This document shows positions 42,817 to 48,174 of a DNA stretch of 64,000 nt, in pieces. The DNA is from Halobaculum sp. MBLA0143 (GTDB taxonomy: Archaea > Halobacteriota > Halobacteria > Halobacteriales > Haloferacaceae), in contig NZ_JBGKAC010000001.1 in the NCBI RefSeq assembly GCF_041361465.1, forward strand, positions 1,736,001 to 1,800,000. The letters are read 5' to 3'. Positions within the stretch are counted from its first letter, which is position 1; every line of letters begins with the position of its first letter. The position numbers and the translations under genes are program-made. The notes below the pieces were generated by a model, which was not told where the DNA came from, ran no database searches, and saw only the letters and a list, made by a program, of their open reading frames with translations.

Positions 42817-44247
42817 TTACCCGAGGCTCCCTTCCATCTCCAGCTCCACGAGCCGGTTGAGCTCCACCGCGTACTCGATGGGCAGCTCCTCCGTGATCGG
42901 CTCGATGAAGCCGCTCACGATCATCTGCTTGGCGTCGTCGTCGTCGAGACCACGCGACTGGAGGTAGAACACGTCCTCGTCGCCGATCTTGCCGACGGTC
43001 GCCTCGTGGGCCACGTCCACCTTCGACTCGTTGATCTCCATGTACGGCATGGTGTCGGAGGTGGACTCGTTGTCGAACATCAGCGCGTCACACTCGACGG
43101 CCGTCGAGGAGTTCTCGGCGCCGTCGGCGATGTGGACGAGCCCGCGGTAGTTCGTGCGGCCGCCGTCCTTGCTGATCGACTTCGACTCGATGGTCGACTT
43201 CGTCTCCGGCGCGTTGTGGTACACCTTCGCCCCGGTGTCGATGTTCTGCCCCTCGCCCGCGAAGGCGATGGTGATGTGGTTGTCGGAGGCGCCGCGACCC
43301 TTCAGCATGGTCGACGGGTACAGCATCGTCGCCTTCGACCCCATCGAACCGGAGATCCACTCCATCCGGCCGTTCTTCTCGGCGATGGCGCGCTTCGTGT
43401 TCAGGTTGTACGTGTTCTTCGACCAGTTCTGGACCGTGGAGTACTGGACGTGGGCGTTCTCGCCGACGAACACCTCGACACCACCACAGTGGAGGTTGAA
43501 CGCCGAGTACTTCGGCGCGGAACAGCCCTCGATGTAGTGCACCTCGGAGTTCTCCTCGGCGACGATGAGCGTGTGCTCGAACTGGCCCATCCCCTCGGAG
43601 TTCATCCGGAAGTACGCCTGCACCGGCATCTCCACCGTCGTGTCCTCCGGGACGTAGACGAACGACCCGCCGGACCACACGGCGCCGTGCAGCGCGGCGA
43701 ACTTGTTGTCGCTGGGCGGCACTGCCTTCGTCATGAAGTGCTCGCGGACGATCTCCTCGTGCTCCTGGACCGCCTTGTCCATGTCACAGAAGATGACGCC
43801 CTTGTCCTCCCAGCGCTCCTGCATGTTCTGGTAGACGACCTCCGACTCGTACTGAGCACCGACTCCCGAGAGGGCGTTCTTCTCCGCCTCCGGGATTCCC
43901 AGCTTGTCGAAGGTGTCCTGGATCTCCTCCGGGAGATCCTCCCAGTTCTCCGCGCCGCCGCGGGCTTCGACGTCCGGCCGGATGTACGGGACGATCTCGT
44001 CCACGTCCACCTCGGAGAGGTCCGGCTGACCCGGCCAGTCCGTCGGCATCGGCATCTCGTGGAACTGCTGGAGCGCACGCAGGCGCCGCTCCAGCATCCA
44101 GTCCGGTTCGTCCTTGTCCTCGGAGATGAGCCGGATCGTCTCTTCCGTCAGGCCCTTCTCCGTCTGGAACGCCGACTTCTCCTCCTTCTTGAAGTCGAAA
44201 CGTGCCTCGGTGTCAGTCTGCTTGAGTTCGTCTTGTTCGGAGCTCAT
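42817..44247 (-). CDS. sufB: Fe-S assembly protein SufB
   Basis: 476 aa. Core scaffold subunit of the SufBCD complex. Recognisable segments: KKEEKSAFQTEKGLTEETIRLISEDKDEPDWMLERRLRALQQF, KLGIPEAEKNALSGVGAQYESEVVYQNM, VPPSDNKFAALHGAVWSGGSFVYVPEDTTVEMPVQAYFRMNSEGMGQFEHTLIVAEENSEVHYIEGCSAP (cluster-site Cys in EGCSAP), and DEDVFYLQSRGLDDDDAKQMIVSGFIEPI. It lies between sufC and sufD, with one base before sufD and 51 nt after sufC. Full length. Confidence 0.97.
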   Translation of the reverse strand: MSSEQDELKQTDTEARFDFKKEEKSAFQTEKGLTEETIRLISEDKDEPDWMLERRLRALQQFHEMPMPTDWPGQPDLSEVDVDEIVPYIRPDVEARGGAENWEDLPEEIQDTFDKLGIPEAEKNALSGVGAQYESEVVYQNMQERWEDKGVIFCDMDKAVQEHEEIVREHFMTKAVPPSDNKFAALHGAVWSGGSFVYVPEDTTVEMPVQAYFRMNSEGMGQFEHTLIVAEENSEVHYIEGCSAPKYSAFNLHCGGVEVFVGENAHVQYSTVQNWSKNTYNLNTKRAIAEKNGRMEWISGSMGSKATMLYPSTMLKGRGASDNHITIAFAGEGQNIDTGAKVYHNAPETKSTIESKSISKDGGRTNYRGLVHIADGAENSSTAVECDALMFDNESTSDTMPYMEINESKVDVAHEATVGKIGDEDVFYLQSRGLDDDDAKQMIVSGFIEPITEELPIEYAVELNRLVELEMEGSLG

Positions 44248-44298
44248 GTGTGTTGATGTGTGTCTCTACGCTCTTGTACCTGTGCCAACCGTTCGTGG

Positions 44299-45231
44299 TT
44301 ACGCCGCTTCGTACACTTCCTCACGGACCCAGTCGTACCCCTGGTCTTCCAGCTTCTCTGCGAGTTCCGCTCCGCCGCTCATGGCGACCTCACCGTCCAG
44401 CATCACGTGGACGTGGTCGGGGTCGACGTAGTCGAGGATCCGCTGGTAGTGCGTGATCTGGAGGACACCGGTGCCCTGCTCGTCGCGCAGCGCCTCGATC
44501 CCCTCGGAGACGTCCTGGAGCCGGTCGATGTCCAGCCCGGAGTCGATCTCGTCGAGCACGGCGATCGACGGCTCCAGCACCGCCGCCTGGAGCACCTCGT
44601 TCTGCTTCTTCTCCCCGCCGGAGAAGCCCGCGTTGAGGTACCGCTCGGCGAACTCCGCGTCCATGTCCAACTGCTCCATCTTCTCCTGGAGGAGCTGTTG
44701 GAACTCCGCGACGCCGACCTCACCGTCGTCGGCGGGCCCCTCCATCGGGGAGGACTCGTAGCCGGCGGCGTCCTCGTTGGTGTCGTCGCCCTCGGCCGTC
44801 TCCTCGTCGGCCTCCTCGTCTTCGAACAGCTCCTCGCGCTCCTCCAGCTTGGCGTTCAGCGCCTGGCGGAGGAAGTTCACCATCGTCACGCCCTCGATCT
44901 CCGCGGGGTACTGGAACGCGAGGAAGATCCCGAGTGCGGCCCGCTCGTTCGGCTCCAGATCGAGCAGCTCCCACTCGTAGTCGTCCTCGTCCAGGTCCTC
45001 GTCGACGTCCGCGACGTCCGCCTCGTCCAGGTGGAGCGTCACGTCACCCTCGGTGACCTCGTAGGCCGGGTGACCGGCGATCACTTTAGCGGTCGTCGAC
45101 TTCCCGGAGCCGTTGGGGCCCATCAGGGCGTGGATCTCGCCGCTCGCCACTTCCAAGTCGACGCCACGGAGGATCGACTCCCCCGTCTCGGCCACTTCCG
45201 CGTGTACGTTCGACAGTTCTATTGTTGCCAT
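44299..45231 (-). CDS. sufC: Fe-S assembly ATPase SufC
   Basis: 310 aa ABC-type ATPase driving SufBD. Walker [20 protein letters not shown]-loop [24 protein letters not shown], signature [17 protein letters not shown], Walker [23 protein letters not shown]-loop QITHYQRIL. It carries two acidic inserts: [21 protein letters not shown] (before the Q loop) and a longer run [26 protein letters not shown] (about residues 151-180), common in halophile SufC. ATG 45231 gives [13 protein letters not shown]. First gene of the suf operon on this strand. Confidence 0.96.
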
Positions 45232-45348
45232 GATTGGTATCCCTCGTACTCTCACAGTGGGCGTTTCCACGCATAATGGTTTCGCATCCGCCCGAGTCCG
45301 GTTTCACAGAGGTGAAGATATCTTCCGCTTCTCACAAACGAGGGGGGC

Positions 45349-48174
45349 TCAGCCCCACTGACCGAGCCCGGTCTGTGTCTGGCCGCTCTCGATCTCGTCC
45401 CACGACAGCCCCAGCGACTCGGTGATCCGCTCGATGGGGCCTTTCAGCGTCTTCTCCAGCATCTTGTCGTAGTCCACGTCGAACTCCGGGGGGATCTCGT
45501 CGGCGAACTCGTAACAGATCACGTCCGGGTCGCGCTTGAACTCCGTGTAGAGGGCGTCGTCCTGGTCGCCCCCGTTCGGCTCCAGCCCCAGCTCCGACTC
45601 GATACGGTCGTAGAAGTCCGGGTGGACGTTGTCGAGGTACAGTCGTTTCGGCTTCGAACCGGACTGGAAGTTGGTGCCCAACAGGAGGTTGGCGTACTTC
45701 GCTCCGCGGACCTGGGCGGTGTCCGTCTCGTAGTTGTCGAGACTCTTCCCGATCCCGCCCGGGATGCCGATCTCGTCGACGTCTACGTCGCCCGCCTGGA
45801 ACGCTTGGATCTCCTCGTGGAGGAACTCCTTCACGTCGTCGAGGTCTTCGCCGGTGACGATCATCTCGATCACGCGCTTCTGAACCCGTTTCGTGATCGG
45901 CGCGATGTCCGACCGGGTGTACTCGAACCCCGTGATGTCGATGTCGTCGACGTGTTTCCCCTCCTTCCAGACGATGTGGCCCGCGTAGCGCTTCTTCTTG
46001 CCCGCCTGGAAGAACCGCCGGTACAGCTTCTCGAACTCGATCTGGAACCGGTGTTCCTCGGCGTCCAACTCCTCGCTGGCGAACTCGTCGTAGCGGTCGT
46101 TGATGTACGACTCGATCTCCTCGCTGGCGTCGATCGCCGCTGCCAGCGTCTGTAACTCCGACTCCGACATTTCCGGGTGGGCCTCCCGGACCGGGTCGGG
46201 GACTTCGACCCCAGTTGTTTCCACATCTGAAAGAGATAACATTATAGAATCGGTATCTCCGTACGTAATATCGTAGTCAATTTCGGCGGCCGCCTCCTCC
46301 GTGAACTCGATTACGCGCCGGCCCATCGCCGTGATCGCCGCGGCGTTGTCCTTGTCGTACAACCGGAACTGCTCCCACCCCGACACCCCATACAAAGAGT
46401 TCATGATTACTTTTATTGAAGATTGTTGTCTGTCGAATTTTTCGTAGGCTTCGGTGTCGGGATCGTGTTCGTTGCGCTGTTGTTTCTTCTGTTCGCGCTC
46501 CGTCAGCAGCGCGTCCACCATCTCCCGCATCATCCCGTCCGGTTCCTTCCGGAACCGGGTACCGTTCGGGGCGCGGTACGTCTCCCCGTCGTACGCCTCC
46601 GGGTCGTCGACGATCGTCTCCGGGGAGGCGTTGATCGTCACCATACACATCGGGTAGAGGCTCTTCAGGTCGAGCACCGAGACGTTCTCCGCGACCCCGG
46701 AGATCGGCTCGAACACGGCCCCGCCCTCGAACTCCTCGCCGGCCTGTTGGCCCTTCGTCGGCAGGACGAACTCCCCGTACGCCTCGTGGAGGACGTACAT
46801 GTCCACCACGTCGCCGGGGGTGGGGGCGTCCTCCAGCTGACAGCCGACGAACTTCCGGGTGTCGTCCCAGAAGTCGATCAGATTCTGCTGGCGGTCGATC
46901 TCGACACACAGCTCCACGTCCCGGAGGTTGTACTCCAGGAGACGCGTCGGGTCGTCCTCCCAGAGGTCGCCGATGTCGCCGGTGTACCGTTCCTTCCCGA
47001 CGCCCAGTTCCAGCTCCGCGACCGCGTCCAGTCGGTACGAGTCCAACTCGGAGAACTGCGTCCGTTGGTAGGCGTACAACAGGTCGAACACGACACGGCC
47101 CTTCACGTCCGGGCCACCCCAGCCCGAGCGCCAGGTCTCCCCGACCCGGGAGGCACGGTCCGGCGCGAGGTCGTAGTCGCTGGCGCCGTTGAGCTCCTCC
47201 ATCCGGTCGAGAAGGTACGGGGCGTCGAAATCCTCAAAATTCCAACCAGTTGTAACGTCCGGATTAGTCTTTTCCAAGTACGCAATAAATGCGTCCAGCA
47301 TCGCGTCCTCCGCCGTGAACTGCTCGACACGGACACTCGCCCCTTCGGAGATGAACTCGTAGTCGTCGAAGGAGTCGTCGACGACGCCGTCGCCGACGGG
47401 GGCGTCGTACAGCCACAACACGTACTCGTCGCGGTAGGAGTCGTGACTCGTCAGACAGACGATGGGCTCGTCGCCGTCTTCCGGGAAGCCGTTGCGGTCG
47501 TCCACCTCGATGTCGAACGTGTTCACCCGGAGGTCGGCGTCCACGTCGGCGGCCTCCAGGTGGTCGGCGGTCACCTGGATCGGGGCGTCCGGGTCGTCGT
47601 CGACGCGGCGGGGCTCGACCCTGATCCCGGAGGTGACGCCGTGGTCGATCAGGAAGCGGTTCGGAAACAGAATGTCCGCCTCGTAGGTGGTCCGGAAGTC
47701 GTCGCGGATCTGCCCCACGTCCCGGGGGGTGCGGGCGGCGACCTTGGTGACGGGCTCGCCACGGATGCTCTCGAACCGGTCGTTGTCGGGGTCGCCGTGA
47801 GGGTGTTCGCGGGTGTCGACGACGACGTCGTACTCGGAGGTGAGGTCGCGGTCGGCGACGTGGTCCGTCGGGACGTAGAAGTACGGCTCCACGCCGACGA
47901 CGCGGACGTGCTCCAGTTCGTTCTCCGGGGTCCGACCGAACACGTGGACGACCGGGTACTCGTCGCTGCCGCGCCCCTCGACGGAGTAGTCGACGGCGGT
48001 CACCATGATCTCGACTGTCGTCTCCGCGCGCGGGTCCGGCACCCGCACGTCGTCGCCCTCGATCACCTCGCTGACGTGTGTCCCGGTCTCCCCGGCGACG
48101 GCGACCGCCTCCGCGTCCGGTCGCTCCCCGCCGTCGTCGGAGACGGCGAGGTCGTCGAACGTCGTCTGATCCAT
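45349..48174 (-). CDS. polB: Family B replicative DNA polymerase
   Basis: 941 aa. Exonuclease domain: Exo I FDIEV, Exo II NFEDFD (N312-D317), Exo III YNLRD. Polymerase: motif A LDLKSLYPM, motif B SSIKVIMNSLYG (N592-G596), motif C YGDTDS (Y638-S643, catalytic Asp pair). There is no intein: the extein motifs are continuous. The codons over Exo II, motif B and motif C abruptly become AT-rich (three patches listed separately) while the protein stays conserved. ATG 48174 gives MDQTTFDDLAV. The start of the frame further upstream is not conserved-looking. It lies downstream of an unrelated divergent gene. Confidence 0.96.
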   Translation of the reverse strand: MDQTTFDDLAVSDDGGERPDAEAVAVAGETGTHVSEVIEGDDVRVPDPRAETTVEIMVTAVDYSVEGRGSDEYPVVHVFGRTPENELEHVRVVGVEPYFYVPTDHVADRDLTSEYDVVVDTREHPHGDPDNDRFESIRGEPVTKVAARTPRDVGQIRDDFRTTYEADILFPNRFLIDHGVTSGIRVEPRRVDDDPDAPIQVTADHLEAADVDADLRVNTFDIEVDDRNGFPEDGDEPIVCLTSHDSYRDEYVLWLYDAPVGDGVVDDSFDDYEFISEGASVRVEQFTAEDAMLDAFIAYLEKTNPDVTTGWNFEDFDAPYLLDRMEELNGASDYDLAPDRASRVGETWRSGWGGPDVKGRVVFDLLYAYQRTQFSELDSYRLDAVAELELGVGKERYTGDIGDLWEDDPTRLLEYNLRDVELCVEIDRQQNLIDFWDDTRKFVGCQLEDAPTPGDVVDMYVLHEAYGEFVLPTKGQQAGEEFEGGAVFEPISGVAENVSVLDLKSLYPMCMVTINASPETIVDDPEAYDGETYRAPNGTRFRKEPDGMMREMVDALLTEREQKKQQRNEHDPDTEAYEKFDRQQSSIKVIMNSLYGVSGWEQFRLYDKDNAAAITAMGRRVIEFTEEAAAEIDYDITYGDTDSIMLSLSDVETTGVEVPDPVREAHPEMSESELQTLAAAIDASEEIESYINDRYDEFASEELDAEEHRFQIEFEKLYRRFFQAGKKKRYAGHIVWKEGKHVDDIDITGFEYTRSDIAPITKRVQKRVIEMIVTGEDLDDVKEFLHEEIQAFQAGDVDVDEIGIPGGIGKSLDNYETDTAQVRGAKYANLLLGTNFQSGSKPKRLYLDNVHPDFYDRIESELGLEPNGGDQDDALYTEFKRDPDVICYEFADEIPPEFDVDYDKMLEKTLKGPIERITESLGLSWDEIESGQTQTGLGQWG
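46220..46290 (-). other. AT-rich codon patch over polB motif C
   Basis: Codons such as ATT, ATA, TTA, TCT, CTT, TCA, ACA and ACT, rare elsewhere in this gene, encode Ile-Asp-Tyr-Asp-Ile-Thr-Tyr-Gly-Asp-Thr-Asp-Ser-Ile-Met-Leu and the next few residues. The known PolB intein site c lies in the Asp-Thr-Asp motif. Confidence 0.85.
46387..46450 (-). other. AT-rich codon patch over polB motif B
   Basis: AAA, AGA, CAA, CAA, TCT, TCA, ATA, AAA, GTA, TCT, TTG and TAT codons encode Lys-Phe-Asp-Arg-Gln-Gln-Ser-Ser-Ile-Lys-Val-Ile-Met-Asn-Ser-Leu-Tyr. The known PolB intein site b lies in the Asn-Ser-x-Tyr-Gly motif. Confidence 0.85.
47230..47295 (-). other. AT-rich codon patch over polB Exo II
   Basis: TTT, ATT, ACT, AAT, GTT, ACA, ACT, GGT, AAT and TTT codons cover the stretch from Ala-Phe-Ile-Ala-Tyr to Thr-Gly-Trp-Asn-Phe-Glu-Asp-Phe-Asp, centred on the Exo II motif at W311-D317. 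Flanking codons return to G/C-ending at both sides. Confidence 0.85.

What the first reader, a model, noticed from the sequence alone, without database searches (positions are those of the whole stretch)
46220..47295. Three AT-rich codon patches in polB sit exactly on Exo II, motif B and motif C
Seen: polB is G/C-ending throughout except in three short windows (46220-46290, 46387-46450, 47230-47295), where codons such as ATA, TTA, TCT, AAA and ACA dominate while the protein stays conserved. They centre on YGDTDS, NSLYG and TGWNFEDFD. Known: PolB inteins insert at the first two motifs (sites c and b); I am unsure whether Exo II is also a described site. Inference: inteins, with flanking DNA co-converted from a low-GC haloarchaeal donor, were acquired and later lost precisely, leaving extein scars. 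Alternatively the synonymous changes were selected to block homing-endonuclease cleavage. Motif A, another known site, is not patched.
Basis: partly seen in the sequence, partly recalled or inferred. Interest (0 to 1): 0.88.

Follow-up and report, generated by a model that had tools for sequence, protein, structure and literature searches.

The report
AT-rich recoding at empty intein sites
In salt-loving archaea, essential replication genes that lack a parasitic intein often carry a short, dense run of silent AT-rich codon changes exactly where the intein would insert, which looks like a footprint of repeated attack by the intein's DNA-cutting enzyme, most likely silent changes that hide the target.

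Summary
PolB in the window has GC3 0.93 outside the patches and 0.33-0.38 inside three patches at Exo II, motif B and motif C. Relatives carry inteins there; a congener has inteins at all three plus motif A. Across 119 high-GC haloarchaeal polB genes, 53 of 59 significant GC3 dips lie within 15 codons of the four insertion points (13% of the gene), 50 of them at empty sites. MCM and PolD large subunit behave alike; named genomes added 8 of 8. Patches span a median -33 to +30 bp, arose about 35 times in polB, match no sampled donor, and retain the relatives' remaining GC codons, so they evolved in place. Conserved serines beside the sites switch TCN/AGY far above control columns, but not in pairs where both alleles are occupied. 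Patched Exo II sites keep native Phe, whereas inteins there leave Cys. The co-conversion-then-precise-loss reading is therefore unlikely. I favour homing-endonuclease-driven silent recoding of the empty target (evasion), with error-prone break repair as main rival. Motif A here is unpatched but carries AGC at the +1 serine, where occupied alleles use TCN. I found no description of this in the literature searched.

The parts
45352..48174 (-). polB, family B DNA polymerase, 941 aa, no intein
   Evidence: Pfam DNA_pol_B 1.2e-43 and DNA_pol_B_exo1 2e-22; matches in all same-family genomes searched
47230..47292 (-). AT-rich patch at the Exo II intein site (I call it d; insertion point between 47239 and 47238, Asn^Phe)
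   Evidence: GC3 0.38 against 0.93, segment LLR 15.7; congener G003 has a 450-aa intein here
46390..46494 (-). AT-rich patch at the motif B intein site (b; insertion point between 46399 and 46398, Asn^Ser of NSLYG); dense core 46390-46452
   Evidence: GC3 0.38 in core, segment LLR 17.0; inteins here in 48 of 134 sampled genes
46204..46284 (-). AT-rich patch at the motif C intein site (c; insertion point between 46255 and 46254, YGD^TDS)
   Evidence: GC3 0.33, segment LLR 23.4; inteins here in 34 of 134 sampled genes
46660..46662 (-). +1 serine codon of the unpatched motif A intein site (a; insertion point between 46663 and 46662), AGC
   Evidence: occupied alleles use TCN 13 of 13, empty alleles AGY 47 of 121, p=0.004; congener G002 has an AT patch here

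Best explanation
The patches are local, silent re-coding of empty intein target sites driven by homing endonucleases of inteins that circulate in related haloarchaea. The proposed steps are as follows. (1) An intein endonuclease from mating partners cuts the empty site (shown by others for haloarchaeal polB and mcm inteins; inferred here). (2) In these polyploid cells, copies with enough nucleotide changes around the cut escape cleavage or homing and replace cut copies (inferred). (3) The site encodes catalytic motifs, so nearly all surviving changes are synonymous (shown). Mutation supply in a GC-rich genome pushes them to A/T (inferred), and endonucleases tolerate single silent changes, so many are needed (literature). 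(4) If an intein does invade, it re-imports target-like GC-rich flanks, so occupied sites look unpatched (pattern shown, cause inferred). The window's polB would be an uninvaded, camouflaged allele at three sites, with a serine codon switch at the fourth.
For: Location: 53 of 59 polB GC3 dips lie within 15 codons of four insertion points covering 13% of the gene, robust to window size (p 2e-29 to 6e-47 treating dips as independent). The same holds in MCM and PolD large subunit and in added named genomes, 8 of 8 dips. 49 of 51 segments span the insertion point. Empty versus occupied: Mantel-Haenszel OR 4.1, chi2 11.9 over ten sites. Recurrence: about 35 changes of patch state in polB on the tree (6, 7, 5, 17). 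Pressure: genera with patched motif A sites are those with occupied congeners, 5 of 6 against 0 of 12 (p=0.0007); motif B 5 of 8 against 0 of 8 (p=0.026). In place, not imported. Serine TCN/AGY switches among close pairs: both-empty 24/178, 29/117, 67/156; both-occupied 1/41; control columns 7/1565. Fitch changes are 25, 10 and 38 against 0-8 elsewhere. Occupied +1 serines are nearly all TCN. Same genome: mcm (L222) has a 524-aa intein at one site and AT dips at its empty sites (p 6e-11, 1e-9).
Against: Median patch length (75 bp) exceeds the 14-40 bp targets of such enzymes (PMC3024317) and the 34-35 bp shown to suffice for cleavage in mcm (PMC10643990), though 21-codon scanning favours long patches. 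Those mcm enzymes also cut targets with several synonymous changes. G-to-C swaps at third positions would evade equally well but are barely raised (0.29 against 0.24). Site c and d patches do not track occupied congeners. Three of 12 dips at polB site b and 5 of 11 at the first MCM site are at occupied sites. Uniform TCN at occupied sites could be co-conversion. No cleavage assay exists.
Confidence: 0.55

Rival explanations
1. Error-prone repair: repeated endonuclease cuts at empty sites are repaired by resection and mutagenic fill-in or end joining, which deposits AT-directed changes about 30-40 bp either side. Purifying selection leaves the silent ones. No selection for resistance is needed.
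For: Segments centre on the insertion point with similar arms (-33 and +30 bp median), longer than an endonuclease footprint. Changes are AT-directed rather than any-change. Amino-acid identity to the nearest relative is slightly lower in patched windows than in unpatched ones at d, a and c.
Against: Transition share in patches (0.59) equals background (0.61), so there is no special signature. Serine box switches need two or three simultaneous changes in invariant codons. The MCM patch is shared by congeners, i.e. long maintained.
Confidence: 0.22
2. Short-tract gene conversion: cut sites are repaired from divergent alleles, including AT-rich ones from low-GC haloarchaea or mobile elements that the endonuclease cannot cut.
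For: Serine box switching is easy by recombination. Some close pairs have 0.55-0.6 identity at site c against 0.83-0.91 codon identity elsewhere. Such breaks are recombinogenic.
Against: No sampled donor for the window's motif C patch in 392 genomes; best hit is a congener at 77%. The best polB hits among viruses and plasmids are below 60% identity. Retained GC codons match host relatives, not low-GC genes (76% against 48%, import expectation 52%).
Confidence: 0.13
3. One reading: inteins from a low-GC donor were acquired with co-converted AT-rich flanks and later lost precisely, leaving extein scars.
For: Intein gain and loss at these sites is frequent (occupancy changes 8, 13, 29, 27 on the tree), and co-conversion is an established part of homing.
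Against: Occupied alleles have mostly unpatched flanks. Patched Exo II sites have Phe, not the Cys that precise excision leaves. No donor; retained codons are native.
Confidence: 0.05
4. Functional codon or DNA feature of the catalytic motifs (slow codons for folding, regulatory element, relaxed codon selection).
For: The sites are in conserved motifs; the linker after motif C is variable.
Against: Most orthologues lack patches. The rest of polB gives 3 dips more than 30 codons from a site in 119 genes. The pattern recurs at unrelated motifs of MCM and PolD.
Confidence: 0.02

Closest known systems
Intein insertion sites of haloarchaeal polB, mcm and PolD large subunit (polB-a to d, cdc21/MCM-a to d, pol-II a and b; Soucy et al. 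2014, PMC4071816; Turgeman-Grott et al. 2023, PMC10643990)
   Same: The patched positions are these insertion points, shown by inteins in relatives. I could not map the published letters of the polB alleles onto my four letters.
   Different: Those papers track presence and absence; the passages I read report no AT-rich silent recoding of empty sites.
Invasion-resistant empty alleles (MCM-d sites with proline at +1, PMC10643990)
   Same: Empty alleles that resist an intein persist among invaded relatives.
   Different: There resistance is a +1 amino acid that blocks splicing while the enzyme still cuts; here the protein is unchanged and the DNA is altered over about 75 bp.
Degenerate homing-endonuclease targets (yeast VDE; from memory, not checked)
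   Same: Target sequence drift that abolishes recognition.
   Different: Here it is dense, AT-directed, recurrent across genera and in three genes.
Exonic co-conversion tracts as footprints of lost group I introns (organelles; from memory)
   Same: Short anomalous tracts flanking an insertion point.
   Different: There the tract comes from the intron donor; here it looks native and sits mainly at empty sites.

Membership tests
Homing-endonuclease-resistant target allele | Lies at a known insertion point and is empty | tested here: met
Homing-endonuclease-resistant target allele | Nucleotide sequence departs from that flanking occupied alleles beyond background | tested here: met
   within 30 bp of sites b, c, d: 15-17 of 60 mismatches to the intein-bearing congener (25-28%) against 15% elsewhere
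Homing-endonuclease-resistant target allele | Not cleaved or invaded by the cognate enzyme | not testable with these tools
   needs a plasmid-protection or homing assay
Homing-endonuclease-resistant target allele | Found where the intein circulates | tested here: inconclusive
   met for sites a and b at genus level (p 0.0007, 0.026), not significant for c and d
Co-conversion scar of a lost intein | Flanks match those of intein-bearing donors | tested here: not met
Co-conversion scar of a lost intein | +1 residue required for splicing retained after excision (Exo II site) | tested here: not met
   patched alleles Phe 6 of 6, occupied Cys 8 of 8
Intein at the same sites in the congener G003 | Splicing and endonuclease domains present | tested here: met
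   four Intein_splicing stretches; LAGLIDADG_3 and Hom_end hits in the polB of L031; not every one of the four inteins was shown to have its own endonuclease hit

The most novel reading that the evidence does not exclude
Haloarchaea repeatedly evolve silent camouflage at intein target sites: dense AT-rich synonymous rewriting of catalytic-motif codons makes essential genes unrecognisable to, or non-recombinogenic with, homing inteins. GC3 dips and serine TCN/AGY switches would then be a genome-readable record of past intein pressure, able to predict unseen insertion sites.
Probability: 0.5. Interest if true: 0.88.

Novelty: new variant of a known kind. Interest (0 to 1): 0.8.

Why it matters
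It would turn an arms race between selfish inteins and their host genes, so far read from presence and absence, into something visible in intein-free genomes. It bears on an open question, how empty alleles survive next to efficient homing elements. It also warns that synonymous sites in conserved genes can be under strong, mobile-element-driven change, which affects codon-usage and dS analyses. The scan is simple (GC3 dips, serine box switches) and could find other homing targets.

Tried and rejected
Low-GC donor: motif C patch DNA against 392 order genomes, polB against phage and plasmid records, and window-wise best matches among sampled polB genes gave no donor. Cytosine-deamination signature: transition share equals background. 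Generic any-change recoding: G/C swaps barely raised. Codon usage of low-GC haloarchaea: patches match neither them nor background cleanly, e.g. TCT and AGA over-used. Genus association: significant only for sites a and b. Strict 'only empty sites' rule: weakened by MCM site 334, 6 of 22 empty against 5 of 20 occupied. Whole-genome scan of the host: file not available, so 20 samples of 20 kb plus the window were used. PolD analysis failed three times on frame choice.

Full report
The observation. The polB gene of the window (45352-48174, minus) has GC3 0.93 outside the sites and 0.33-0.38 in three patches of 63-105 bp. The protein is a normal family B polymerase. Relatives give the insertion points by direct alignment: WN^F at Exo II (d), K^S at motif A (a), N^S at motif B (b) and D^T at motif C (c); the letters are mine. 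A congener, G003, carries inteins of 450, 401, 421 and 437 aa at all four, with intein splicing and LAGLIDADG/Hom_end domains.

Generality. I collected 134 distinct polB genes from this family and order. In the 119 GC-rich ones, 21-codon GC3 dips (p<1e-4) number 59; 53 lie within 15 codons of an insertion point, which is 13% of the gene, and the rest of the gene is almost free of dips. Window sizes of 9 to 31 codons give the same result. MCM (four sites) and PolD large subunit (two sites) repeat it. A further set of named genomes (Haloarcula, Haloarchaeobius, Halobaculum and others, partly overlapping the first) gave 8 dips, all near sites and all empty; Halobaculum gomorrense and Haloarchaeobius iranensis are named examples. 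The window's own genome repeats it outside polB: its mcm has an intein at one site and AT-rich dips at two empty regions.

Empty versus occupied. Over ten sites, dips are about four times as likely at empty sites (Mantel-Haenszel OR 4.12, chi2 11.9; site c 28 of 95 against 0 of 24). Exceptions exist, chiefly the first MCM site (6 of 22 against 5 of 20). In G003 the inner flanks of occupied sites are GC-rich while some outer codons remain AT-rich, as if the intein had brought target-like flanks into a patched gene (sequences; a reading by eye).

Anatomy. Segments have median length 75 bp and run -33 to +30 bp; 49 of 51 span the insertion point. Four-fold sites in patches end in A/T in 52% of cases against 4.7% in background, two-fold sites 56% against 5.1%; among four-fold codons still ending in G or C, swaps are 29% against 24%. 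The transition share is unchanged. Scanning with 21-codon windows biases the length upward, but the unselected profile at site c also shows the deficit from about -30 to +45 bp.

Origin. Retained GC-ending four-fold codons match the nearest unpatched relative 76% of the time, against 52% expected if the tract came from low-GC genes. The window's motif C patch has no near match in 392 genomes. Patched Exo II sites keep Phe at +1 although occupied sites carry Cys, so they are not precise excisions. On a tree built outside the sites, patch state changes 6, 7, 5 and 17 times at d, a, b and c.

A second signal, not used to find the patches. Conserved serines next to the sites switch between TCN and AGY, which no single silent mutation can do. 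Rates between nearest relatives are 22% near polB sites against 2.3% far from them. In close pairs, both-empty pairs switch in 24/178, 29/117 and 67/156 cases, both-occupied pairs in 1/41, and control columns in 7/1565 (pairs are not independent). Fitch changes are 25, 10 and 38 against 0-8 at other conserved serines. Occupied alleles keep TCN at +1 (motif A 13 of 13, motif B 47 of 48, MCM 27 of 27), while empty ones often have AGY. The window's motif A site, unpatched, has AGC. MCM (20% against 8%) supports this less strongly and PolD does not show it.

Mechanism. A cause tied to intein endonucleases is, in my judgement, close to certain. Which step leaves the mark is open. Evasion explains the bias to empty sites, silent-only change, multi-step serine switches, long maintenance within a genus and, for sites a and b, occurrence in genera where the intein circulates. 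Published work shows these enzymes tolerate single silent changes (PMC3024317) and several in mcm (PMC10643990), so many changes would be needed. Mutagenic repair explains the symmetry, the AT direction and a length beyond the recognition site. Both may act together.

Literature. Nine full-text searches of the held library found intein distribution, homing and +1-residue resistance papers but no report of AT-rich silent recoding at empty intein sites. Subscription papers are largely not held, so absence is not proof.

Noticed in passing
L222 (G000:C1:2689000-2694500): The window's genome carries a 524-aa intein in mcm at site 361; its empty sites 334 and 400/414 are AT-rich, the latter shared with congeners L223 and L224.
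   Followed up: yes
L259 (G000:C1:2900600-2905300): The PolD large subunit of the same genome has a 197-aa intein, too short for a full endonuclease, at site 901 and a weak dip near the empty site 930.
   Followed up: partly
polB motif C region (about codons 600-680), genera g13 and g5, e.g. L105 against L069, L094 against L099: Close relatives (codon identity 0.87-0.91 elsewhere) have only 0.55 nucleotide identity at site c, as if distinct allele classes are being exchanged there.
   Followed up: partly
L075 codons 820 and 879; L173 (mcm) codons 639-690: Deep GC3 dips far from any known intein site; they could mark unknown insertion sites, recombination tracts or frame errors.
   Followed up: no
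MCM site 400 in L162-L258: The +1 residue at empty sites varies widely (Pro, Ala, Ser and others) while occupied sites always have Ser, agreeing with PMC10643990.
   Followed up: partly
window 42817-45270: Next to polB lie ORFs on the same strand that look like SufB and SufC (iron-sulfur assembly), named from sequence by eye only.
   Followed up: no
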